From NCBI GenBank assembly GCA_006247105.1, contig CM016925.1:2108001-2172000 (forward strand): a DNA stretch of 64,000 bases, read 5' to 3'. Positions 5,512 to 51,300 of the stretch are shown here, piece after piece. Each line of letters starts with the position of its first letter. The stretch's first letter is position 1. The translations under genes were made by a program, and so were the position numbers. Source of the stretch: Giardia muris. Taxonomy: Eukaryota; Fornicata; Diplomonadida; Hexamitidae. A model generated the notes under the pieces. That model was not told where the DNA came from, did no database searches, and worked only from the letters and a program-made list of their open reading frames with translations.

Positions 5512-6117
5512 TCACATTTGGTTGACACGGGCGACCAGGTCCGAGACATCATGCTGAGTCACCGCCGATGTCGCTTGAAGAGAATCCGGTGGCAAATCGA
5601 TCTTCACGTTGACAATCTCGTCGATGATCTTGCTGATCTCCGCGTCCTCGTCGGGAGACGCGAAGACGGCATCCACCTGGCTATTCATGTTATCCATCGA
5701 GGCGTTGAAGCGCTGCATCGCCTTGCTAAAAGTCTTAAGGTTCTCGACGCACGTGCTATTCATAAACGCCCCGCTGATCTTCTGTACGACATCAGCGGAG
5801 TCGCGAAGACACATCAGTGCCTTCGTCTGTGCCGCCTGAATGCTTATGCTCCGCCTCAAGTCATCGAGGCCAGCGATTTGTGCGTCGATCGCGGCAATTG
5901 AGTTCTTCCCACGGAGGATGGCCTTAGCAAGCTCGCAAGCCGCGCCTTTGCTCCCGGCCTTCACCATCTCGCGGACCTCCTGCTCGAGCTCATCGATGTT
6001 GCGTTCGATCTCGCGTCGCTCGCGCCCAAGCTCTCGAGTGGCCTCTCTGGTGGCCGTGTTCATGTGGGTGACCATGTCGTCGATGGTGGTCTTCTTGGTG
6101 ACCTTGAAGGACGACAT
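5512..6117 (-). CDS. ESCRT-III subunit, Vps2/CHMP2-like
   Basis: 201 aa from the ATG at 6117; the longer frame starts with GTG and is rejected. Residues 22-105 form a basic N-terminal helical hairpin with the pattern RELGRERREIERNIDELEQEV, followed by LAKAILRGKN, as in CHMP2/Vps2. The C-terminal half is acidic (PDEDAE about 155-160) and ends with a helix ISKIIDEIVNVKIDLP that sits where the MIT-interacting motif of Vps2 lies, but it lacks the usual Arg/Leu spacing. ESCRT-III proteins polymerise on endosomal and other membranes for scission and are disassembled by Vps4. A Vps46/CHMP1 identity is less likely but not excluded. Two snoRNAs lie head-to-head upstream. Confidence 0.7.
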   Translation of the reverse strand: MSSFKVTKKTTIDDMVTHMNTATREATRELGRERREIERNIDELEQEVREMVKAGSKGAACELAKAILRGKNSIAAIDAQIAGLDDLRRSISIQAAQTKALMCLRDSADVVQKISGAFMNSTCVENLKTFSKAMQRFNASMDNMNSQVDAVFASPDEDAEISKIIDEIVNVKIDLPPDSLQATSAVTQHDVSDLVARVNQM

Positions 6118-6168
6118 CTTTTTGACGGACGAGATTGATTGGGATTTGCCCACCCTTGAAAAGGATAA

Positions 6169-6248
6169 ACTGAATGATGACGGTTACCAGCTACCGCTGA
6201 GCCCAGCGTGATGAGCACAAACCACCTTTCGTCTGAGCCTTCACTCAA
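6169..6248 (+). ncRNA. Box C/D snoRNA 1 with Giardia ncRNA 3' motif
   Basis: All elements are in order on the plus strand: box C ATGATGA (6174-6180), box D' CTGA (6197-6200), box C' GTGATGA (6208-6214), box D CTGA (6233-6236), then CCTTCACTCAA (6238-6248), which fits the Giardia ncRNA 3' processing consensus CCTTYNHTHAA. The mature RNA is probably about 70 nt, ending near the motif. The guide before D' (6181-6196) is complementary to a sequence containing GTAGCTGGT, an element conserved in large-subunit rRNA; the predicted methylated base is the fifth from D'. The guide before D (6215-6232) has no target I recognise. The 5' end is approximate and no long terminal stem is visible. Confidence 0.8.
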
Positions 6249-6269
6249 GCTCGGGGGGCCGTCATCGGT

Positions 6270-6337
6270 GTGCAATGACGATAACACCCAGCTCACTCTG
6301 ATCATGATGAGGATGTGGTGTCTGAGCCTTTGTTCAA
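6270..6337 (+). ncRNA. Box C/D snoRNA 2 with Giardia ncRNA 3' motif
   Basis: Follows snoRNA 1 directly. A variant box C ATGACGA (6275-6281), box D' CTGA (6298-6301), box C' ATGATGA (6304-6310), box D CTGA (6322-6325) and 3' motif CCTTTGTTCAA (6327-6337) are in the right order. The guide before D' (6282-6297) is complementary to AGTGAGCTGGGT, which contains the near-universal GUGAGCUGGGU of the large-subunit rRNA peptidyl-transferase region, where 2'-O-methylations are known in other eukaryotes. The D guide (6311-6321) is short. The 3' motif overlaps the stop codon of the opposite-strand transporter gene (6334-6336). Confidence 0.78.
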
Positions 6338-7758
6338 CTGATACCTTGAGTCCCAATGGTATAGAAGAGACACGTAGTCGCGGTCGCGAAGATCACCACC
6401 CCAACTATGAGGGATGTGAGGGCGGCGTTCTTCAAGGCAGTGATATGCCGAGGGCGAATCTTAAGGAGTGAGAATGCCTCTTCTTGACGCTCCCGAACGG
6501 CGGCCGTACTCCGGGTCGTATTATATCTACTCCTTTTCGAGAGGAGGGTATATGCGTAAAGGCTAGGGAAGATGAAGACAAGAGGAAGGCCAGAAAGGAT
6601 GCCAGTGATATCTAGGATGAACCCTACGTCCGTCACCATGCACCCTATGACCGTGCTAGCCATAACGGTCGCGATGGAGATGAGAATTATCCACTTCCGT
6701 TGGACAAACTCCGCATGAAAGATGAGGTTTTCAAGGGAGCGTCGGAATGAGAAGCAGACGACGGGATATGAGAGCATGAGTATAAGGATGACACAGACGT
6801 TAGCGATCCAACTGCAGACTCTAGCCGGCTTGTACTCTCCAAGGTTCATGATGATATCAGCCTCGCACCTATCCGTGAACATCAAATACCCAAATACTCC
6901 GCTGATCAGGTTAATGGCCGTGCAGATGATGGCTGTGCTTACGACGATCCCGGTCATCTTTCGCAGGGATCTCACCTTCAGCTCGCGATAAATATTGATT
7001 GAATTATAATGGCCGCAGTATGACATTGTCAGACTCGCCACCGCCATGACGGCATCTATTGATGGGACCGCGGCTCTAAGTGGCCCCTTGGCTATTGGGG
7101 TCACCTTTCCTGTCGTAGAAAGAAGGTAGAACACCGTTAACACTCCGCCTATGTATAGCATGCATCCCAGGCTAACAAATGATGTGATCCACAAAGAACT
7201 AAGGTTCCGAGTTAGGGTGAGTGGTAGGATCACCAGAAAGGCTAAACCAATCAAGAGGACCCTACTCGCCCACTCATAGTCCGGGTTGTAGGAGAAGAAG
7301 AACATGTTCTCCCTAATCATTACCATGAACGATGAGATTAAGCCTCCGGTGAGAGCGAGACTGAGGACCCCGACGAGCCGCCCCACGTGGCGGTTGTAAA
7401 GCTTCGTGGCGATCGCCGCGTACTCGTATATCTGCAGCGTATCAGCTACAAAGCTCAGAAGGTAAAACGAGAATGAGCCGATAACTACCATTAGAAGAAG
7501 CGCAAATATCCCGACCGCCCAGCCCGAGCGCATCAGGCAGTACGGGAGCGCCAGGAGCCCGGGCCCGAGGATCGTGTTCGCCAGATTGATGACGCTGCTA
7601 AAGCCGGAGGCCGAACCGACAAACGGAACCACAAACTGTTCCGAGACGTCGCTCAGCAACGAAAGCTCGAACCCCTCGTCGGGTAAGGACGTCTCGAGGC
7701 TCAATGGCTCTCCTAGGAAGACGGGGCCATCACCAGCGGTGACAGTTCCCCGACTCAT
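6334..7758 (-). CDS. Amino acid transporter, AAAP/SLC38-like family
   Basis: 474 aa from the ATG at 7758; an in-frame ATG at 7791 would overlap the divergent gene's leader, and the longest frame begins with TTG. A soluble N-terminus of about 45 residues is followed by roughly eleven hydrophobic helices. The first contains the family hallmark INLANTILGPGLLALPYCL, typical of AAAP (amino acid/auxin permease) proteins such as Avt and SLC38. They move neutral or cationic amino acids across the plasma or vacuolar membrane with protons or sodium. The substrate cannot be read from sequence. The start codon sits 25 bp from that of the divergent poly(A) polymerase gene, with a T-rich run just upstream on this strand. 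The 3' end overlaps the snoRNA 2 motif. Confidence 0.85.
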   Translation of the reverse strand: MSRGTVTAGDGPVFLGEPLSLETSLPDEGFELSLLSDVSEQFVVPFVGSASGFSSVINLANTILGPGLLALPYCLMRSGWAVGIFALLLMVVIGSFSFYLLSFVADTLQIYEYAAIATKLYNRHVGRLVGVLSLALTGGLISSFMVMIRENMFFFSYNPDYEWASRVLLIGLAFLVILPLTLTRNLSSLWITSFVSLGCMLYIGGVLTVFYLLSTTGKVTPIAKGPLRAAVPSIDAVMAVASLTMSYCGHYNSINIYRELKVRSLRKMTGIVVSTAIICTAINLISGVFGYLMFTDRCEADIIMNLGEYKPARVCSWIANVCVILILMLSYPVVCFSFRRSLENLIFHAEFVQRKWIILISIATVMASTVIGCMVTDVGFILDITGILSGLPLVFIFPSLYAYTLLSKRSRYNTTRSTAAVRERQEEAFSLLKIRPRHITALKNAALTSLIVGVVIFATATTCLFYTIGTQGIS

Positions 7759-7783
7759 CTTGAAAACACTCAAAAAAACGCGG
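7759..7783. promoter_or_regulatory. 25-bp bidirectional promoter region
   Basis: This interval separates the minus-strand transporter start (7758) from the plus-strand poly(A) polymerase start (7784). It contains TGAAAACACTCAAAAAAACG, so both start codons have an A- or T-rich run within 25 bases upstream. Giardia core promoters are short A/T-rich elements at the start site and are often bidirectional. Confidence 0.6.
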
Positions 7784-9124
7784 ATGGACATCTGCTCATG
7801 GCGTGGATACCCATCGCTCAGGTCTCCGACGCACTCTCTCAACCAAGGGCTGGTAGGCTACCTTAACCACTGCCTTCCCTGTAAAGGAGAACTGGAGGCC
7901 CGCCAGCGGATCTTCGATAGCATCCGTGAGGCGATTAAGAACGTAGGGGGCCTGATTCCTACGGAGGCGTTTGGCTCATGGCCCTGTGGGCTCTGTTTCC
8001 CGGATTCAGATATTGACATTCAAGTTATTCGGCCTGGACGCCAATCCTTCACCCTTGCTAGTCTATACCGGGAGCTCTGCTTCGAGTTCGCCGAGGTCAA
8101 GAACCCTGGGGTCATGGACCCGATGTTTCTCCAGCTTCGACACAAAGAGACGTCACTTCTTATCGACATCTACGTGTACGATGAAGCGCGCTTCGACACC
8201 TTGCAATCCCATAACATGCGGGCCTCGTCTGCGTTCTACAAGGAGAACCCGGTCCTCTATGGACTCTATGCTATAGTTCGGTCCTTACTCAAGAAGCATA
8301 ATTTCTATGCCCCTTCAGGGCCCGTTGACCCATATCTCGAGGCTAACTCGGAGTTCTGTGAGGAGGAAGGCGATGACGAAAACCCGATGCAGAAGTATTA
8401 TCGTAGGCCACAGGTGCAAAGTGGAAGGCGTGCAGTTACTCGATCAGCCTCAACACGACGTCAAAGATATACTTCCGCGTTACGACCGAGTGGGAAGGTA
8501 AGTGGACGAACTAGACAAGGGAGTATTAGTCCAAGCCCAGGGTTACTAGCACTTTCCACCATTCCTCGCTCAGATACGGTCATAGCCACCACAAATGAGA
8601 GGCCGCTTGGCATATCCGGATATATGCTCTCCTGGATGATTCAAGCGTTTGTACAACATGGGTTTTCGGATATGGGATTGGTTCCATACACCCCCACTTC
8701 CATCTATACCATTGCCGAGCTTGTCATCCTCTTTATGGGATATTATAGCTACGTGTTCCCTTACGAGACGACCTTCATGCTCGTCCCTTCCGAACAGAAA
8801 TATGAGGTCCTTTACCTGAAGAAGTCTGAAAACCGACTCTATCATACACTCATCTCAAGCAAGGGACTTGAGGACGACATTCAGTTCGTCATCATTGAAG
8901 AAGCCTCCAGGCGCGTCATCTCCGAGGATACCTTCAATTTCGCCTCGGTCCAGTACCTATTCATGGACGTCCTATTAGTTCTTCGTCAACACATCGAGGG
9001 GGTCGTGTCAAGCGTATCTATTCGGGACCTCTTCGGATTTGTCGATTACACAGAAGTCCGTAGGAAGCAGCTTGCCTTCATCGCCCCTAAGCTCGAGAAG
9101 TACAAGTACATGGACCATTATTGA
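7784..9124 (+). CDS. Non-canonical poly(A) polymerase / nucleotidyltransferase (Trf4/Cid1-like)
   Basis: 446 aa from the ATG at 7784; the frame is open further upstream but that part is antisense to the transporter. Pol-beta-type nucleotidyltransferase signature: GS (64-65), PDSDIDI with catalytic Asp76 and Asp78, and a third Asp at 128 (LLIDIY). The central domain shows the DxR-L-RSLLKKHN pattern followed, after an insertion, by LGISGYMLSWMIQAFVQ, which corresponds to the GxLSSYxLxLMxxxFLQ helix of Trf4/Cid1 enzymes; a PAP-associated segment follows (FMGYYSYVFPYETTFML). A Ser/Arg-rich insert of about 70 residues (roughly 205-275) splits the central domain. Likely roles are tailing of nuclear or cytoplasmic RNAs; A versus U specificity is not readable. 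Stop is 2 bp from the convergent LRR gene. Confidence 0.8.
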   Translation: MDICSWRGYPSLRSPTHSLNQGLVGYLNHCLPCKGELEARQRIFDSIREAIKNVGGLIPTEAFGSWPCGLCFPDSDIDIQVIRPGRQSFTLASLYRELCFEFAEVKNPGVMDPMFLQLRHKETSLLIDIYVYDEARFDTLQSHNMRASSAFYKENPVLYGLYAIVRSLLKKHNFYAPSGPVDPYLEANSEFCEEEGDDENPMQKYYRRPQVQSGRRAVTRSASTRRQRYTSALRPSGKVSGRTRQGSISPSPGLLALSTIPRSDTVIATTNERPLGISGYMLSWMIQAFVQHGFSDMGLVPYTPTSIYTIAELVILFMGYYSYVFPYETTFMLVPSEQKYEVLYLKKSENRLYHTLISSKGLEDDIQFVIIEEASRRVISEDTFNFASVQYLFMDVLLVLRQHIEGVVSSVSIRDLFGFVDYTEVRRKQLAFIAPKLEKYKYMDHY

Positions 9125-32036: not shown

Positions 32037-32539
32037 ACAAGGCGTTTACGAAGCCCCAGTTCGAGGGCGACGCGAGCAAGCGCAGGGCTGAGAGCAGGAC
32101 TGGGGGCTGCAGGACCACCGCGAAGCATCTCGAGGTACACCTGATCCCGCGGGGTATACGTCCGTCCCGCGGAGGTTGCCTCGTACGAGAAGACGACAGG
32201 AGGCGCGACCTCCGAAGTGGAGGGCTGGCCCGTCTCAGGAGCGTTCAGCAGAAGCCGCCGGATGACGGCCGCAGCCTCCTGAAGACAGCGCTCGGTCCGG
32301 GCAGACGCCTCCCGGGGCTCTGTTCCTCCGTCCGAGGAGCTCCCATGCTCATGAGGCACCTGGTCGGGCTCCCCACGAGGAACGAGACGCGTCCGAACGG
32401 GATCCGTGCTGTCAATGTGAAGCACGGCAACAGGATACTCCAGAAGCTCAGGAGGAATGGGACCTTGGCCAGCGGGGGCGAAGAGGGTGAGACCGGAGTC
32501 CGTTCGCTGGAGCGGAAGATAGAAGCCCGGAGAGGCCAT
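31808..32539 (-). CDS. Uncertain gene; 3' part antisense to ASNSD1-like gene
   Basis: 243 aa if read to its stop at 31808, ATG at 32539. The first about 165 residues (non-overlapping, 32040-32539) are protein-like: Pro/Ser-rich, with helices such as TERCLQEAAAVIRRLLL and ALARVALELGLRKRLV. The last about 75 residues run through 229 bp antisense to the ASNSD1-like gene and look like a Ser/Arg-rich shadow. Either the gene overlaps its neighbour unusually far, or the true stop has been lost by a frameshift. No domain was recognised. It is divergent from the H3 gene across 118 bp. Confidence 0.45.
   Translation of the reverse strand: MASPGFYLPLQRTDSGLTLFAPAGQGPIPPELLEYPVAVLHIDSTDPVRTRLVPRGEPDQVPHEHGSSSDGGTEPREASARTERCLQEAAAVIRRLLLNAPETGQPSTSEVAPPVVFSYEATSAGRTYTPRDQVYLEMLRGGPAAPSPALSPALARVALELGLRKRLVYSRRSAGATSSYPSPLRIRAQPEPNCAARFGRAAMDSGTPISRAASLTTRLSWSCAGSVSRSPAKRDATEYVRSG
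32032..32038 (+). terminator. Poly(A) signal AGTAAAC overlapping the stop
   Basis: An exact match to the Giardia AGTRAAY consensus; the TAA at 32034-32036 inside it is the stop codon of the ASNSD1-like gene. Confidence 0.55.
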
Positions 32540-32657
32540 TTAGTGAAGGTTCAGCAATCGACTTGCATCCTCAGAAGTCAGTCCGCCCGTCGAGCATCCT
32601 CATTGCTTTTTTGGGGAGGGGCCGGTCGCGGTAAAGTCGGAAGGGACAAAAGAAAAG

Positions 32658-33143
32658 ATGGCACGCCTCAAGAGCACAGCGATCGATCGGATGAAGTCCG
32701 GAACCCCGCCTCCTGCGCGGAAGACGACAAAGGCTCCTCGAAAGACAATCCTCTCCAAGAAGACCGTTGCTCGCAAGGCCCTTGACGGAAAGCACCGCGA
32801 GGGTCGCTCCTCGTCACGCCGAGCCCGGCCTGGCGCCGTGGCCGCACGTGAGGTTGCCGCCCAGCAGAAGCGTACTGACAACGTAATCCCCTTGGCACCC
32901 TTCTCGCACCTCGTTCGCGAAATCACCGCTGCAACCGGGGCAACCGACATCCGCTTCCAGAGCACGGCAATCCAGGCCCTTCAGAACGCTGCGGAGAGCA
33001 CCCTCATCCAGATCCTCGGGGATTGTCAGACTCTTGCGAACCATGCAAATCGCGTCACCGTCATGGACAAGGACCTCCGCGTCTTCCTCAGAGTTGTTCG
33101 CCCGTCCTGGTACCGTGAATCCGCATACCGAAGTCTAGTGTAA
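32658..33143 (+). CDS. Divergent histone H3 variant
   Basis: 161 aa, ATG at 32658 after ACAAAAGAAAAG. The histone fold is clear: PFSHLVREI, IRFQSTAIQALQNAAES, HANRVTVMDKDLR. It differs from canonical H3 in several ways: a longer tail that keeps ARKTTKAPRK (compare ARKSTGGKAPRK around K9-K14, minus two Gly) but about 13 residues further in; a changed alpha-N helix (VAAREVAAQQKR); one extra residue in loop 1 between REI and RFQ; and a C-terminus RVVRPSWYRESAYRSLV instead of ARRIRGERA. A longer loop 1 and divergent tail are traits of centromeric H3, so it could be cenH3, or the second non-canonical H3 known in Giardia. No him element is visible upstream, unlike H2A. Confidence 0.88.
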   Translation: MARLKSTAIDRMKSGTPPPARKTTKAPRKTILSKKTVARKALDGKHREGRSSSRRARPGAVAAREVAAQQKRTDNVIPLAPFSHLVREITAATGATDIRFQSTAIQALQNAAESTLIQILGDCQTLANHANRVTVMDKDLRVFLRVVRPSWYRESAYRSLV

Positions 33144-33432
33144 ACGGTGTATCGAGGTGTCCATCTTGGGACCGCAGGATCCTGCTGGGTGAGGAGAAGA
33201 CCGTCCTCCAACAGAGCCCTCACGTTCTGGTGTGGTCTGGGACCATCTACAGGCCAATGGCAGACTTCACTCGCCTGTAGAACTGGAGGCGGTCGGAGTA
33301 GCCAGGAGCACACGGGGATCTATCCAGAGGACACCCTGGGAAGTAGAGGAGAAGGGGAGCGTCCCGAAGCGGTGGGGATCAAGCTCTTCGTGCAGGTTCC
33401 GGATTTATACTCTGACCCATTCGGGCACAGGA

Positions 33433-48346: not shown

Positions 48347-51300
48347 TCACTGCTGGCTACCGAGGCGATGCTGCTTGACCCACTCCCAGACGAAGATGGC
48401 GCAACTGACATGTACGTTCAACGAGCGTACCTGGCCGAACTGTGGGATCTCGATCGTCTGATCACACTCTTGCAAGACCTCATCCGGACATCCCTTGTTC
48501 TCGTTCCCAAGGATCAAGACCGCCCGCTCAGGGAGCCGTGCCTTCTCTAGGAGGACTGAGCGGTTGCTCTGCTCAAGCCCAACTAGTGTGTATCCCTCGG
48601 CACGCTTTATCCGCATCCATTCGATTAACTGGAGAGGAGGGACCGCTTCCGTATGGAGCCAACGATCCGCCGTCGCAGACATCGTGCGGAACATTTTGTC
48701 TTGCGTGCAGCTTAGGTCGCTAAGGACGAGCGCCTCGAGCTGGAATACCTCTGCTGTACGTGCGAGCCCTCCCAGGTTCGTGGTCTTACTCAGAAGACTA
48801 GCGTTGATGATCAAAGATCCGGTCAGAGTAGGTGACTTCTTCCCTGCGTCTGATATGGACTGGGCCGTTACTTGTAATATCTTTTGTTGATAGATGTAAT
48901 CACACGTGGGCTCCACCTCGGAGTACGTGATGTCTCGAAGACAGGTGCCTCCACCTTCTCCCATGTCGTAGATCTTCGCGTAGCTTGTAACGTATGCGTA
49001 TGCCTCCTCAATGCTCTGGAGCACGTTCCCGTCGACCGCGGAGATCTCTGCCAAAGGGAAGGCAGTATCGTAGTGTGATGCGTAAAGGACCATCTTGAGA
49101 GCAGTGCTTCTTGGGTCGAGTGCATCAAGGATGCTCCCGTACTTCTGCTGAACCTCGTTCTGGGTAAGTGAACTCTTGAAGATGAAAAGTAAAGATGGAC
49201 TGACCCCAATAGTCGTCAATATCGACCGAACGATAGATGATTGCCGTGACTTATCGAGTGCTATGGCGATCTCGTCAAGTGCGCAGAAAAGAGACTGTGC
49301 GGTTGAACGAATACTATGAACAGGACAGATAGCACAAGGAAGAATGATCCGAAGAAGCGAGCGCAGATGTAACTGCGAATCGGGTTCTGCTACTATTATA
49401 TCCAAAGACCCATCTAGAGTGCACTTAATGACAAGAGATGCGACAATAACGCGGGATTGGATGAATGACGGCTTCAACCCAAAGAGGTCATCCGCGGAGA
49501 TATTCCCGAGCGTCTTGAAGGCCGAAGTGACCGGGTTATGGGTTGCAAGTAGAAGGAGAGCACATGCTTGTTCTAAGACTTCGCGCATCGTTCGGCCCCA
49601 CCCCGCGTTCATTAATCGCAGATCAATGATGTTGACCAGATTTAGGATGGTCTTTTGCTGGCTTTCATCAAGGTTTTTCTCCTCCCGTTCAGAATGGTAG
49701 ATCATACTCGCAAGCATCCTTATAAGCTTGACGAAATGATCCTGCTGACGTTGGGCGATAGAGTGTGGGGCGAAGAGCCTCGGTTTGTATTCGAGAAGAG
49801 GGACTAGAAGGGTAGTAAAGAGATTCGCGAGTGCGTCCTGTGAAACGGTTCTAGGATCAACTCGGAAAGATTGGTCATTGCCTTGAGCAAGGCACTCTGG
49901 AGAGCGCCCCGCTCCCGCCCACTTGAGGAGACGGATAAGGACGAGTAATGGGCCCATGATCGAGGCAAGGTACTGAATCTTCGTTAATGCACTAATACGA
50001 AGTCGGTAATCTGCGAAATGAACATCACCGGGTACCTCTACCTCACCGATCGCAACCGAGCTATCAACACTGTACCCGATCGTCGCTATAGTGCGGATAT
50101 CACCGGAGTGTGTTGTGTCGTGGTCGTTCGGGACGAATAATGCAAATATGAGGACTACATCCAGGACGTACTCACAAATGAAGGTGCTCCGGAGCTTAAT
50201 CGCGGTCGCCTTCGAGAAGAACGCCTGAATGGCGCGCATCAAAGGGGCACCAAGGACGTGGGCATAAGTGGACGTCGTATAGATGAACGTGTAGACGCGC
50301 ACGCAGAAGCGCTTGAAGAGGGTGTAGACCTCGTCGAAGATCGCCGAGTTCTGGATGAGATGAAGGCCGTACATTACTTCAAGGACATCGGCACTATAGA
50401 TGAACTCGGCCGCCAGGTGTAGAAGGTGGCCGCATTGCCGTGGATCGGGGTCGATGGCAAGGTCGTAGACAACTCGGAATAAGGCTCGGAAAGCATCAAG
50501 ATATGGCCCCAGAATATCGCAACGCTCACATATCTGAAAGCGGCACTCGCCAAGGAGTCTTCCGAAGCATATGAACAGGGCCTGCAGGTAACAAGAAGGA
50601 GACGAAGACCAGGCCTCCGCCAGAGCTTGTATGGCATCTGCATCGAAGGCTTGAATATTGGTTTGAAGATTCGCGTCCAGCGCAGTGAGAGTCAACATGT
50701 TTGTCGAGATCGTCAGCCCCCAATCATCTGGCTTCCAACGGACAGCACGTAATGGAGTGAAGAGCTTAGAGGAAAGCACAAAAGGTCCCACATCATCGCC
50801 TTGCACCTTCGCCCGAAGCTCGTGATATAAGGTATTTAGCTCCTCATTCGCATCCAGCTGGTATAGAATCGTAATGAGAGCTGTGAGCCGCGACGCACGA
50901 ATCGGAGTCAGCGGCGTTGCCAATGCCACACGGACGATTCCGACTAACGATTCTGCAAGCATCGGGCAGTTACTTACCGAGTCATAGACAGCTTTCAGAT
51001 GGGTTGAGGCGAGAAGAGATAGGATTGGAGCATCCGGAGCATCCAACGTCGCAGCAATATGGCGGACCAGTGCACTTGAAAGACGGAAATAAACGGAGTC
51101 GGGGACGTCTACGGCTGAGTGGTTTGCAAGACAAATGATAAGAAACGTCTTGTGAACAAACTGCTGGTCACTACTCGGGTCTGATTGATCTTCAAAGATG
51201 GCCTCAATATGCCGCTCCATGAGGTATCGTACCTCGGTCGTTAGAGAGAGCTGAAAGTCGACGGAGGACGTGTATACCGCCTCAAGAAGCTGGCAGAGTT

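What the first reader, a model, noticed from the sequence alone, without database searches (positions are those of the whole stretch)
6169..6337. Tandem pair of box C/D snoRNAs in a 216-bp gap between two protein genes
Two complete C-D'-C'-D sets are each followed at once by the Giardia ncRNA 3' processing motif (CCTTCACTCAA and CCTTTGTTCAA). The pair sits between the Vps2-like and transporter genes and has no protein-coding alternative. The arrangement suggests a single precursor cut twice.
Basis: partly seen in the sequence, partly recalled or inferred. Interest (0 to 1): 0.75.

Follow-up and report, generated by a model that had tools for sequence, protein, structure and literature searches.

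The report
Paired Giardia snoRNA genes
Between two ordinary protein genes of the mouse parasite Giardia muris lie two small RNA genes in a row that very probably guide chemical marking of the ribosome; one is the counterpart of a known human-Giardia RNA, so this is a well-supported but ordinary find.

Summary
The window lies on the largest contig of the Giardia muris genome. The 216-base gap 6118-6333 carries two C-D'-C'-D sets on the + strand, each followed after one base by the Giardia ncRNA 3' processing motif. The full pattern occurs twice in the window and 0 times in 300 random windows. RNA 1 is the likely counterpart of G. lamblia GlsR8, source of miR10 (E 9e-6 locally, 7.4e-5 genome-wide, but below the curated cut-off, as are the 6 other GlsR matches found). 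Its guides fit 28S A656 and A527. RNA 2 has a D' guide for 28S A2373, the guide of SNORD29/TtnuCD4; its D side has no target. Only RNA 1 has an A-rich upstream stretch, so one precursor cut at both motifs is likely, as others showed for G. lamblia pairs. Expression is untested. The cryo-EM list of G. lamblia rRNA modifications supports A527 only to within one base and lacks the other two sites. A new member of a known kind.

The parts
6153..6173 (+). A-rich stretch before RNA 1, possible promoter/initiation region
   Evidence: 11 A in the 30 bases before the C box, longest A run 4; 6 of 7 other C/D loci have a run of 5 or more there
6169..6238 (+). snoRNA 1, likely counterpart of G. lamblia GlsR8 (miR10 source)
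   Evidence: RF02337 E 9e-6, 32.9 bits, model 1-70/70, cut-off 100; best of 2 hits in the genome, E 7.4e-5
6174..6180 (+). C box of RNA 1
   Evidence: ATGATGA
6182..6196 (+). D' guide of RNA 1, target 28S A656
   Evidence: 15-position duplex with one G-U and one mismatch, 3 of 300 shuffles as good; perfect run 10, 65 of 5000 shuffles reach it
6197..6200 (+). D' box of RNA 1
   Evidence: CTGA
6208..6214 (+). C' box of RNA 1
   Evidence: GTGATGA
6221..6231 (+). D guide of RNA 1, target 28S A527
   Evidence: 11 perfect pairs; 12 of 300 shuffles as good with G-U and mismatches allowed, 14 of 5000 reach the perfect run
6233..6236 (+). D box of RNA 1
   Evidence: CTGA
6238..6248 (+). 3' processing motif 1
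   Evidence: CCTTCACTCAA; motif
6249..6274 (+). 26-base spacer, no long A run
6270..6327 (+). snoRNA 2, with a SNORD29-like D' guide
   Evidence: weak C/D family matches: snoPyro_CD 4e-4, SNORD29 0.041, TtnuCD4 (guide only) 0.56, all below cut-off; one match in the genome, itself
6275..6281 (+). C box of RNA 2
   Evidence: ATGACGA
6286..6296 (+). D' guide of RNA 2, target 28S A2373
   Evidence: 11 perfect pairs; 7 of 300 shuffles as good, 21 of 5000 reach the perfect run
6298..6301 (+). D' box of RNA 2
   Evidence: CTGA
6304..6310 (+). C' box of RNA 2
   Evidence: ATGATGA
6322..6325 (+). D box of RNA 2; no rRNA target found for the sequence before it
   Evidence: CTGA; 274 of 300 shuffles as good; perfect run 7, 2361 of 5000 reach it
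6327..6337 (+). 3' processing motif 2, overlapping the transporter stop codon on the other strand
   Evidence: CCTTTGTTCAA; the same variant abuts the 3' end of the G. muris RNase MRP RNA match
5512..6117 (-). upstream neighbour, Snf7-domain (ESCRT-III) gene, divergent
   Evidence: PF03357 E 5.4e-12
6334..7791 (-). downstream neighbour, amino-acid transporter gene, convergent
   Evidence: PF01490 E 8.7e-51

Best explanation
Two box C/D guide snoRNA genes form one transcription unit on the + strand of the largest Giardia muris contig. A single A-rich start before 6174 drives a short precursor; an unidentified nuclease cuts at or just before each CCTTYNHTHAA motif, releasing a GlsR8 counterpart (about 70 nt) and a second RNA (about 58-63 nt). 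Loaded with fibrillarin and partners, RNA 1 directs 2'-O-methylation of 28S rRNA near A527 (D guide) and A656 (D' guide), and RNA 2 directs it at A2373 (D' guide). Shown here: boxes, motifs, family match of RNA 1, guide matches. Inferred: transcription, cleavage, methylation.
For: GlsR8 covariance match over all 70 positions, 54 of 68 aligned bases equal to the consensus. Guide matches: 3 of the 5 best-placed rRNA matches among 499 CTGA of the window fall in this pair. Method control: the same scan puts the GlsR4, GlsR5 and GlsR6-like loci on G2045, G1885 and G2243; published G. lamblia targets are Gm2040, Gm1880 and Gm2234, cryo-EM sites Gm2042, Gm1882 and Gm2237. The motif abuts, overlaps or lies one base after the 3' ends of the G. 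muris RNase MRP, SRP, U4, GlsR17 and GlsR18 matches, directly follows the D box in the GlsR4, GlsR13 and GlsR14 matches and lies six bases after it in GlsR5. Dicistronic precursors and 3' ends at the motif were shown by RT-PCR and RACE in G. lamblia. Longest A run before the C box: 5 or more in 6 of 7 other loci, 4 in RNA 1, 2 in RNA 2.
Against: No RNA data. Rfam finds nothing at curated cut-offs. The D side of RNA 2 has no target. The cryo-EM list for G. lamblia holds no Am at the places matching A656 or A2373, and its Am523 maps to A526 rather than A527 at the offset that fits 20 of 24 listed 28S bases. Shuffled guides score as well in 3, 12 and 7 of 300 cases for the three guides when G-U pairs and mismatches are allowed. 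No clear terminal stem. The A-rich signal before RNA 1 is weak (longest run 4).
Confidence: 0.75

Rival explanations
1. Two independently transcribed snoRNA genes, each with its own start, that merely lie next to each other.
For: A 2024 review states that each G. lamblia intergenic region holds a single snoRNA and that there is some evidence for independent transcription; the motif would then only trim 3' ends.
Against: The 30 bases before the C box of RNA 2 hold 4 A and no A run above 2, whereas 6 of 7 other C/D loci have a run of 5 or more; dicistronic precursors exist in G. lamblia.
Confidence: 0.15
2. RNA 1 is a real GlsR8 snoRNA, but RNA 2 is a decayed or orphan C/D RNA without a methylation target in use.
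For: No target for its D side; no modification listed at the matching G. lamblia site; no Giardia Rfam family matches it at E 10.
Against: All four boxes and the motif are present, and its D' guide has 11 perfect pairs at a guide sequence shared with SNORD29 and TtnuCD4. The cryo-EM list was modelled on human and Leishmania patterns and covers some of the modified bases.
Confidence: 0.12
3. Chance resemblance of intergenic sequence to snoRNA boxes.
For: Boxes are short; Rfam scores are below curated cut-offs.
Against: 0 of 300 random windows hold the full pattern; GlsR8's other genome hit has E 7.0; guide placement is exceptional among 499 CTGA.
Confidence: 0.02

Closest known systems
G. lamblia GlsR8 (RF02337, GlsR8_miR10)
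   Same: All 70 model positions aligned, conserved D' region CAGCUACCGCUGAGCCCA and similar D guide; published target Am525 lies near A527.
   Different: Score 32.9 bits against a cut-off of 100. The passages on GlsR8 that I saw name no partner gene for it.
SNORD29 / Tetrahymena TtnuCD4
   Same: RNA 2 shares most of the guide before D'.
   Different: Scores 21.9 and 17.8 bits, below cut-offs of 48 and 60; for TtnuCD4 the guide part alone aligns.
G. lamblia dicistronic ncRNA units GlsR17/GlsR18 and GlsR25/GlsR26
   Same: Two ncRNAs in a row with the 3' motif; matches to GlsR17 and GlsR18 lie side by side in G. muris.
   Different: Those units hold at least one H/ACA RNA; this one holds two C/D RNAs.

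Membership tests
Box C/D guide snoRNA (RNA 1 and RNA 2) | C (RUGAUGA) and D (CUGA) boxes with internal D' and C' | tested here: met
   Read directly; RNA 2's C box is ATGACGA, one base off
Box C/D guide snoRNA (RNA 1 and RNA 2) | 10 or more nt complementary to rRNA just before D or D', target at the fifth base | tested here: met
   3 of 4 guides: A656, A527, A2373; RNA 2's D side fails
Box C/D guide snoRNA (RNA 1 and RNA 2) | Terminal stem closing C and D | tested here: inconclusive
   By eye only: none seen for RNA 1, about 2 pairs for RNA 2; precursor fold z-score -0.22
Box C/D guide snoRNA (RNA 1 and RNA 2) | Expressed RNA bound by fibrillarin/Nop1, 2'-O-methylation of the target | not testable with these tools
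   No RNA data held
GlsR8 (RF02337) | Covariance match over the full model at the curated cut-off | tested here: inconclusive
   Full length, E 9e-6, but 32.9 of 100 bits; the 6 other GlsR matches in G. muris (GlsR4, 5, 13, 14, 17, 18) are below cut-off as well
GlsR8 (RF02337) | Same guide target (23S Am525 in G. lamblia) | tested here: inconclusive
   D guide at A527. Offsets to the published numbers are 2 here and 5, 5, 9 at three other snoRNAs; cryo-EM Am523 maps within one base. The two numberings do not run parallel at this site, so the exact base is open
SNORD29/snR71 class | Guide to the GUGAGCUGGG segment of 28S rRNA | tested here: met
   11 perfect pairs; the link to yeast Am2946 is recalled
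SNORD29/snR71 class | Covariance match at cut-off | tested here: not met
   21.9 of 48 bits; not filed as a member by descent
Giardia motif-processed dicistron | Two ncRNAs on one strand, motif at or just after each 3' end | tested here: met
Giardia motif-processed dicistron | Joint precursor detected by RT-PCR, ends at the motif by RACE | not testable with these tools
   Done by others for G. lamblia

The most novel reading that the evidence does not exclude
The pair ties an miRNA-yielding snoRNA (GlsR8/miR10) and a guide for the heart of the large ribosomal subunit to one precursor, so that cutting at the two motifs sets their ratio. The spacer run CCGUCAUC is complementary to the C-box region of RNA 1 (GAUGACGG) and partly to that of RNA 2 (AUGACG), so it could mask a C box until the precursor is cut. 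The guides for A656 and A2373 would be G. muris rRNA methylations not listed for G. lamblia.
Probability: 0.08. Interest if true: 0.6.

Novelty: new member of a known kind. Interest (0 to 1): 0.32.

Why it matters
It gives snoRNA genes, with named targets, for a Giardia species whose genome paper does not use the words snoRNA or ncRNA in its main text. It shows that the 3' motif and the paired layout reach beyond G. lamblia, and that a GlsR8-like RNA, the miR10 host, is kept in G. muris, which lets miR10 claims be tested by comparison. Hudson et al. leave the factors that recognise and cut the motif open; a compact two-motif precursor of about 170 nt is a handy substrate for finding them.

Tried and rejected
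Rfam at curated cut-offs over the whole window: nothing; the permissive search on the interval gave the GlsR8 match. Folding the precursor: no more stable than shuffles, 78 of 200 fold as well, so no structure-based processing model is pressed. Coding alternative: three ORFs entering the gap have no Pfam match at E 0.01. RNA 2 as GlsR10 (published target Am2456): rejected, since its target lies at A2373 and no Giardia Rfam family matches it at E 10. Second target of RNA 1's D guide, 28S A326 (10 pairs): kept as a weaker option than A527 (11 pairs). The broad motif pattern alone is a poor marker: CTGA plus 0-8 bases plus CMTTYHHTHAA gives 18 hits against 13 for its reversed control; the variant with G gives 2 against 0. 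Of those 18 I examined 13 (11 fetched, 2 in the window) and left 5 unfetched. Dropped before the C/D comparison: L014 (no C box), L066 (its motif lies beyond an RNase P RNA match), L069 and L072 (no C box). The target scan was weak or empty for several other loci (60 shuffles each): both boxes of L062 (GlsR13-like) and L067 (GlsR14), the D side of L017, L035, L038, L043 and L068; the GlsR6-like D' match of L038 is reached by 13 of 60 shuffles and Rfam did not match L038 to GlsR6 at E 0.5. One 11-base guide-like match at 50998 (-) shows no C box in the 60 bases before it and is taken as chance. G. lamblia genome sequence was not searched: the collections open to me are prokaryotic, viral or plasmid, and no metagenome scan was allowed, so the homologous gap was not compared base by base.

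Papers: PMC3510501 (abstract, passages, first of three parts of the results), PMC11427974 (first two of four parts, passages), PMC7641422 (passages), PMC8860606 (abstract, passages, Table 2), PMC3228867 (abstract, passages), PMC3937270, PMC3565978 and PMC3091692 (passages), others only as search listings. Searches for Giardia muris with snoRNA, GlsR8, Giardia with snoRNA and processing motif and Giardia muris with genome and non-coding RNA list no paper whose title is on G. muris snoRNAs; this library lacks most subscription journals. Recalled, from no call: that U51/snR39/snR59 correspond to the A656 site, U18 to the A527 site, snR71 to yeast Am2946 near the peptidyl transferase centre, snR38 to Gm2815, and snR70/U43 to the 18S site named under Noticed in passing.

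Full report
Where it is. The window is bases 2108001-2172000 of contig 1 of a 9,737,486-base, 52-contig genome. Two of its large contigs have 1,296,710 and 1,289,658 bases, matching the 1.297 and 1.290 Mb chromosomes of Giardia muris in PMC7641422 (passages). That paper's main text has 0 occurrences of snoRNA or ncRNA, one of 'non-coding RNA' (in a reference title), and reports the motif TCCTTTACTCAA in trans-spliced genes.

Observation. Between a Snf7-domain gene (5512-6117, -) and an amino-acid transporter gene (6334-7791, -) lie 216 bases. The + strand holds two complete C-D'-C'-D sets, each followed after one G by CCTTYNHTHAA. Motifs start 89 bases apart; the spacer from motif 1 to C box 2 is 26 bases. 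Motif 2 overlaps the stop codon of the convergent transporter gene. The full pattern is found twice in the window and 0 times in 300 random windows of the same first-order composition, both strands; the pattern was drawn up after seeing the site. The window has 7 CCTTYNHTHAA sites in all, both strands; three follow a C..D unit: the two here and one at 32539-32549 (-).

Identity of RNA 1. cmscan with permissive filters gives GlsR8_miR10 (RF02337) at 6169-6238, full model, 32.9 bits, E 9e-6. Across the genome it is the best of 2 hits, E 7.4e-5, the other being E 7.0; 61 of 1340 first-look candidates were scored. The same search at E up to 10 rings in 9 of 14 control genomes, none over the cut-off, so weak hits mean nothing; the strength here rests on the E-value and the guides. 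The score is below the cut-off of 100. The other GlsR matches found in G. muris are also below their cut-offs: GlsR4 39.3 of 70, GlsR5 43.6 of 100, GlsR13 26 of 100 (weak, E 0.036), GlsR14 50.8 of 90, GlsR17 33.2 of 84, GlsR18 37 of 100.

Guides. G. muris rRNA genes were taken from contig 18. With the D+5 rule, RNA 1 D' fits 28S A656, RNA 1 D fits 28S A527 with 11 perfect pairs, and RNA 2 D' fits 28S A2373 with 11 perfect pairs; RNA 2 D fits nothing better than shuffles. With G-U pairs and mismatches allowed, 3, 12, 7 and 274 of 300 shuffled guides do as well (1, 2, 5 and 51 of 60). On the stricter measure of a perfect run, 65, 14, 21 and 2361 of 5000 shuffles reach it. Of 499 CTGA in the window, 5 have a run of 10 or more: three in this pair, one in the other snoRNA at 32581 (-), one at 50998 (-) without a C box before it.

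Control against known sites. The scan puts the GlsR4, GlsR5 and a GlsR6-like locus on G2045, G1885 and G2243 (2, 2 and 13 of 60 shuffles do as well); G. lamblia lists give Gm2040, Gm1880 and Gm2234 and, by cryo-EM, Gm2042, Gm1882 and Gm2237. For the A527 region the lists give Am525 (GlsR8) and Am523. At offset +3, which fits 20 of 24 listed 28S bases, Am523 is G. muris A526, one base from the predicted A527. The cryo-EM numbers exceed the older ones by 2 or 3 at the three control sites but are 2 lower here, so Am525 and Am523 may not be the same base. A656 and A2373 have no counterpart in the cryo-EM list. That list was modelled with human and Leishmania patterns as references and covers some of the modified bases, so absence is weak evidence against. 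The 2024 review lists snR39/59 and U51/U32 as homologues of GlsR8, which by recall fits the D' guide, although it gives the target as Am525, which fits the D guide better; GlsR8 may be a double guide.

RNA 2. It has no Giardia Rfam match at E 10. Its best matches are generic C/D families (snoPyro_CD E 4e-4) and, over the D' guide, SNORD29 (E 0.041) and TtnuCD4 (E 0.56). It has no second copy in the genome search. I call it a C/D snoRNA with a SNORD29-like guide, not a SNORD29 family member by descent.

Processing. Hudson et al. 2012 (PMC3510501, results part 1) found the motif at G. lamblia ncRNA 3' ends, mapped ends within or just before it, and detected dicistronic precursors by RT-PCR; GlsR17/18 and GlsR25/26 are named clusters. 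In G. muris the motif abuts the 3' end of the RNase MRP RNA match (over its cut-off; with the very variant CCTTTGTTCAA seen in motif 2), overlaps that of the SRP RNA match (63 of 65 bits) and lies one base after the U4 match (54.1 of 100 bits). It directly follows the D box of the GlsR4, 13 and 14 matches and lies six bases after that of GlsR5. One search lists 58 places of CCTTYRYTCAA on the five large contigs; I examined 55 (53 fetched in the window) and left 3. Most of the fetched sites have neither a D box nor an RNA match and many lie in long open frames, so the motif alone is no proof. Among the fetched loci the GlsR17 and GlsR18 matches (L019), which overlap each other, have two motifs 104 bases apart. 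No second C..D-motif pair turned up in the fetched loci; loci without a fitting motif were not surveyed. Before the C box, 6 of 7 other C/D loci have a run of 5 or more A, RNA 1 has 4 and RNA 2 has 2. This favours one start and two cuts.

Verdict. What is added is the identity of RNA 1, the targets, and the controls. It is a new member of a known kind; the C/D-C/D make-up and the partner of GlsR8 are new as far as the passages seen go. I also moved the GlsR8 target row from met to inconclusive, because the two published numberings do not run parallel there. That both units are C/D snoRNA genes I hold at about 0.95.

Noticed in passing
window 32539-32603 (-): Another C/D snoRNA-like gene ending at CCTTCACTAAA, with an A run before it. 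Its D' guide fits 18S C1300 with 10 perfect pairs (12 of 60 shuffles do as well), the segment ACCGCCCGTC (by recall the snR70/U43 site, the class of GlsR1); Rfam gives only a weak sR1 match.
   Followed up: partly
window 32406-33206 and G000:C1:2046000-2046800: An 801-base stretch holding that snoRNA is present twice, 100% identical, about 94 kb apart; the ends of the duplication were not sought.
   Followed up: partly
L019 (G000:C1:752000-752800): GlsR17 (miR2 source) and GlsR18 matches side by side with two 3' motifs: the G. lamblia dicistron seems to be kept in G. muris.
   Followed up: partly
L058, L045, L042, L066: G. muris RNase MRP RNA, SRP RNA and U4 matches end at or one base before the same motif; an RNase P RNA match (L066, 112-348) lies upstream of a motif with CTGA before it.
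   Followed up: partly
rDNA contigs, e.g. G000:C18:1135 and 8751: CCTTCATTCAA recurs about every 7.5 kb, outside the 18S, 5.8S and 28S genes; whether an ncRNA ends there was not examined.
   Followed up: no
L029, L030, L059 and L022, L037: Motif copies with shared flanks (TGTTGTGTGTYT before CCTTTACTCAA; GCGGACTGYRTC before CCTTTACTCAA), perhaps trans-spliced intron halves or a repeat.
   Followed up: no
window 6176-6183 and 6259-6266: The spacer holds CCGTCATC, complementary to the C-box region of RNA 1 and partly to that of RNA 2; the predicted fold pairs this region, but the fold is no better than shuffles.
   Followed up: no
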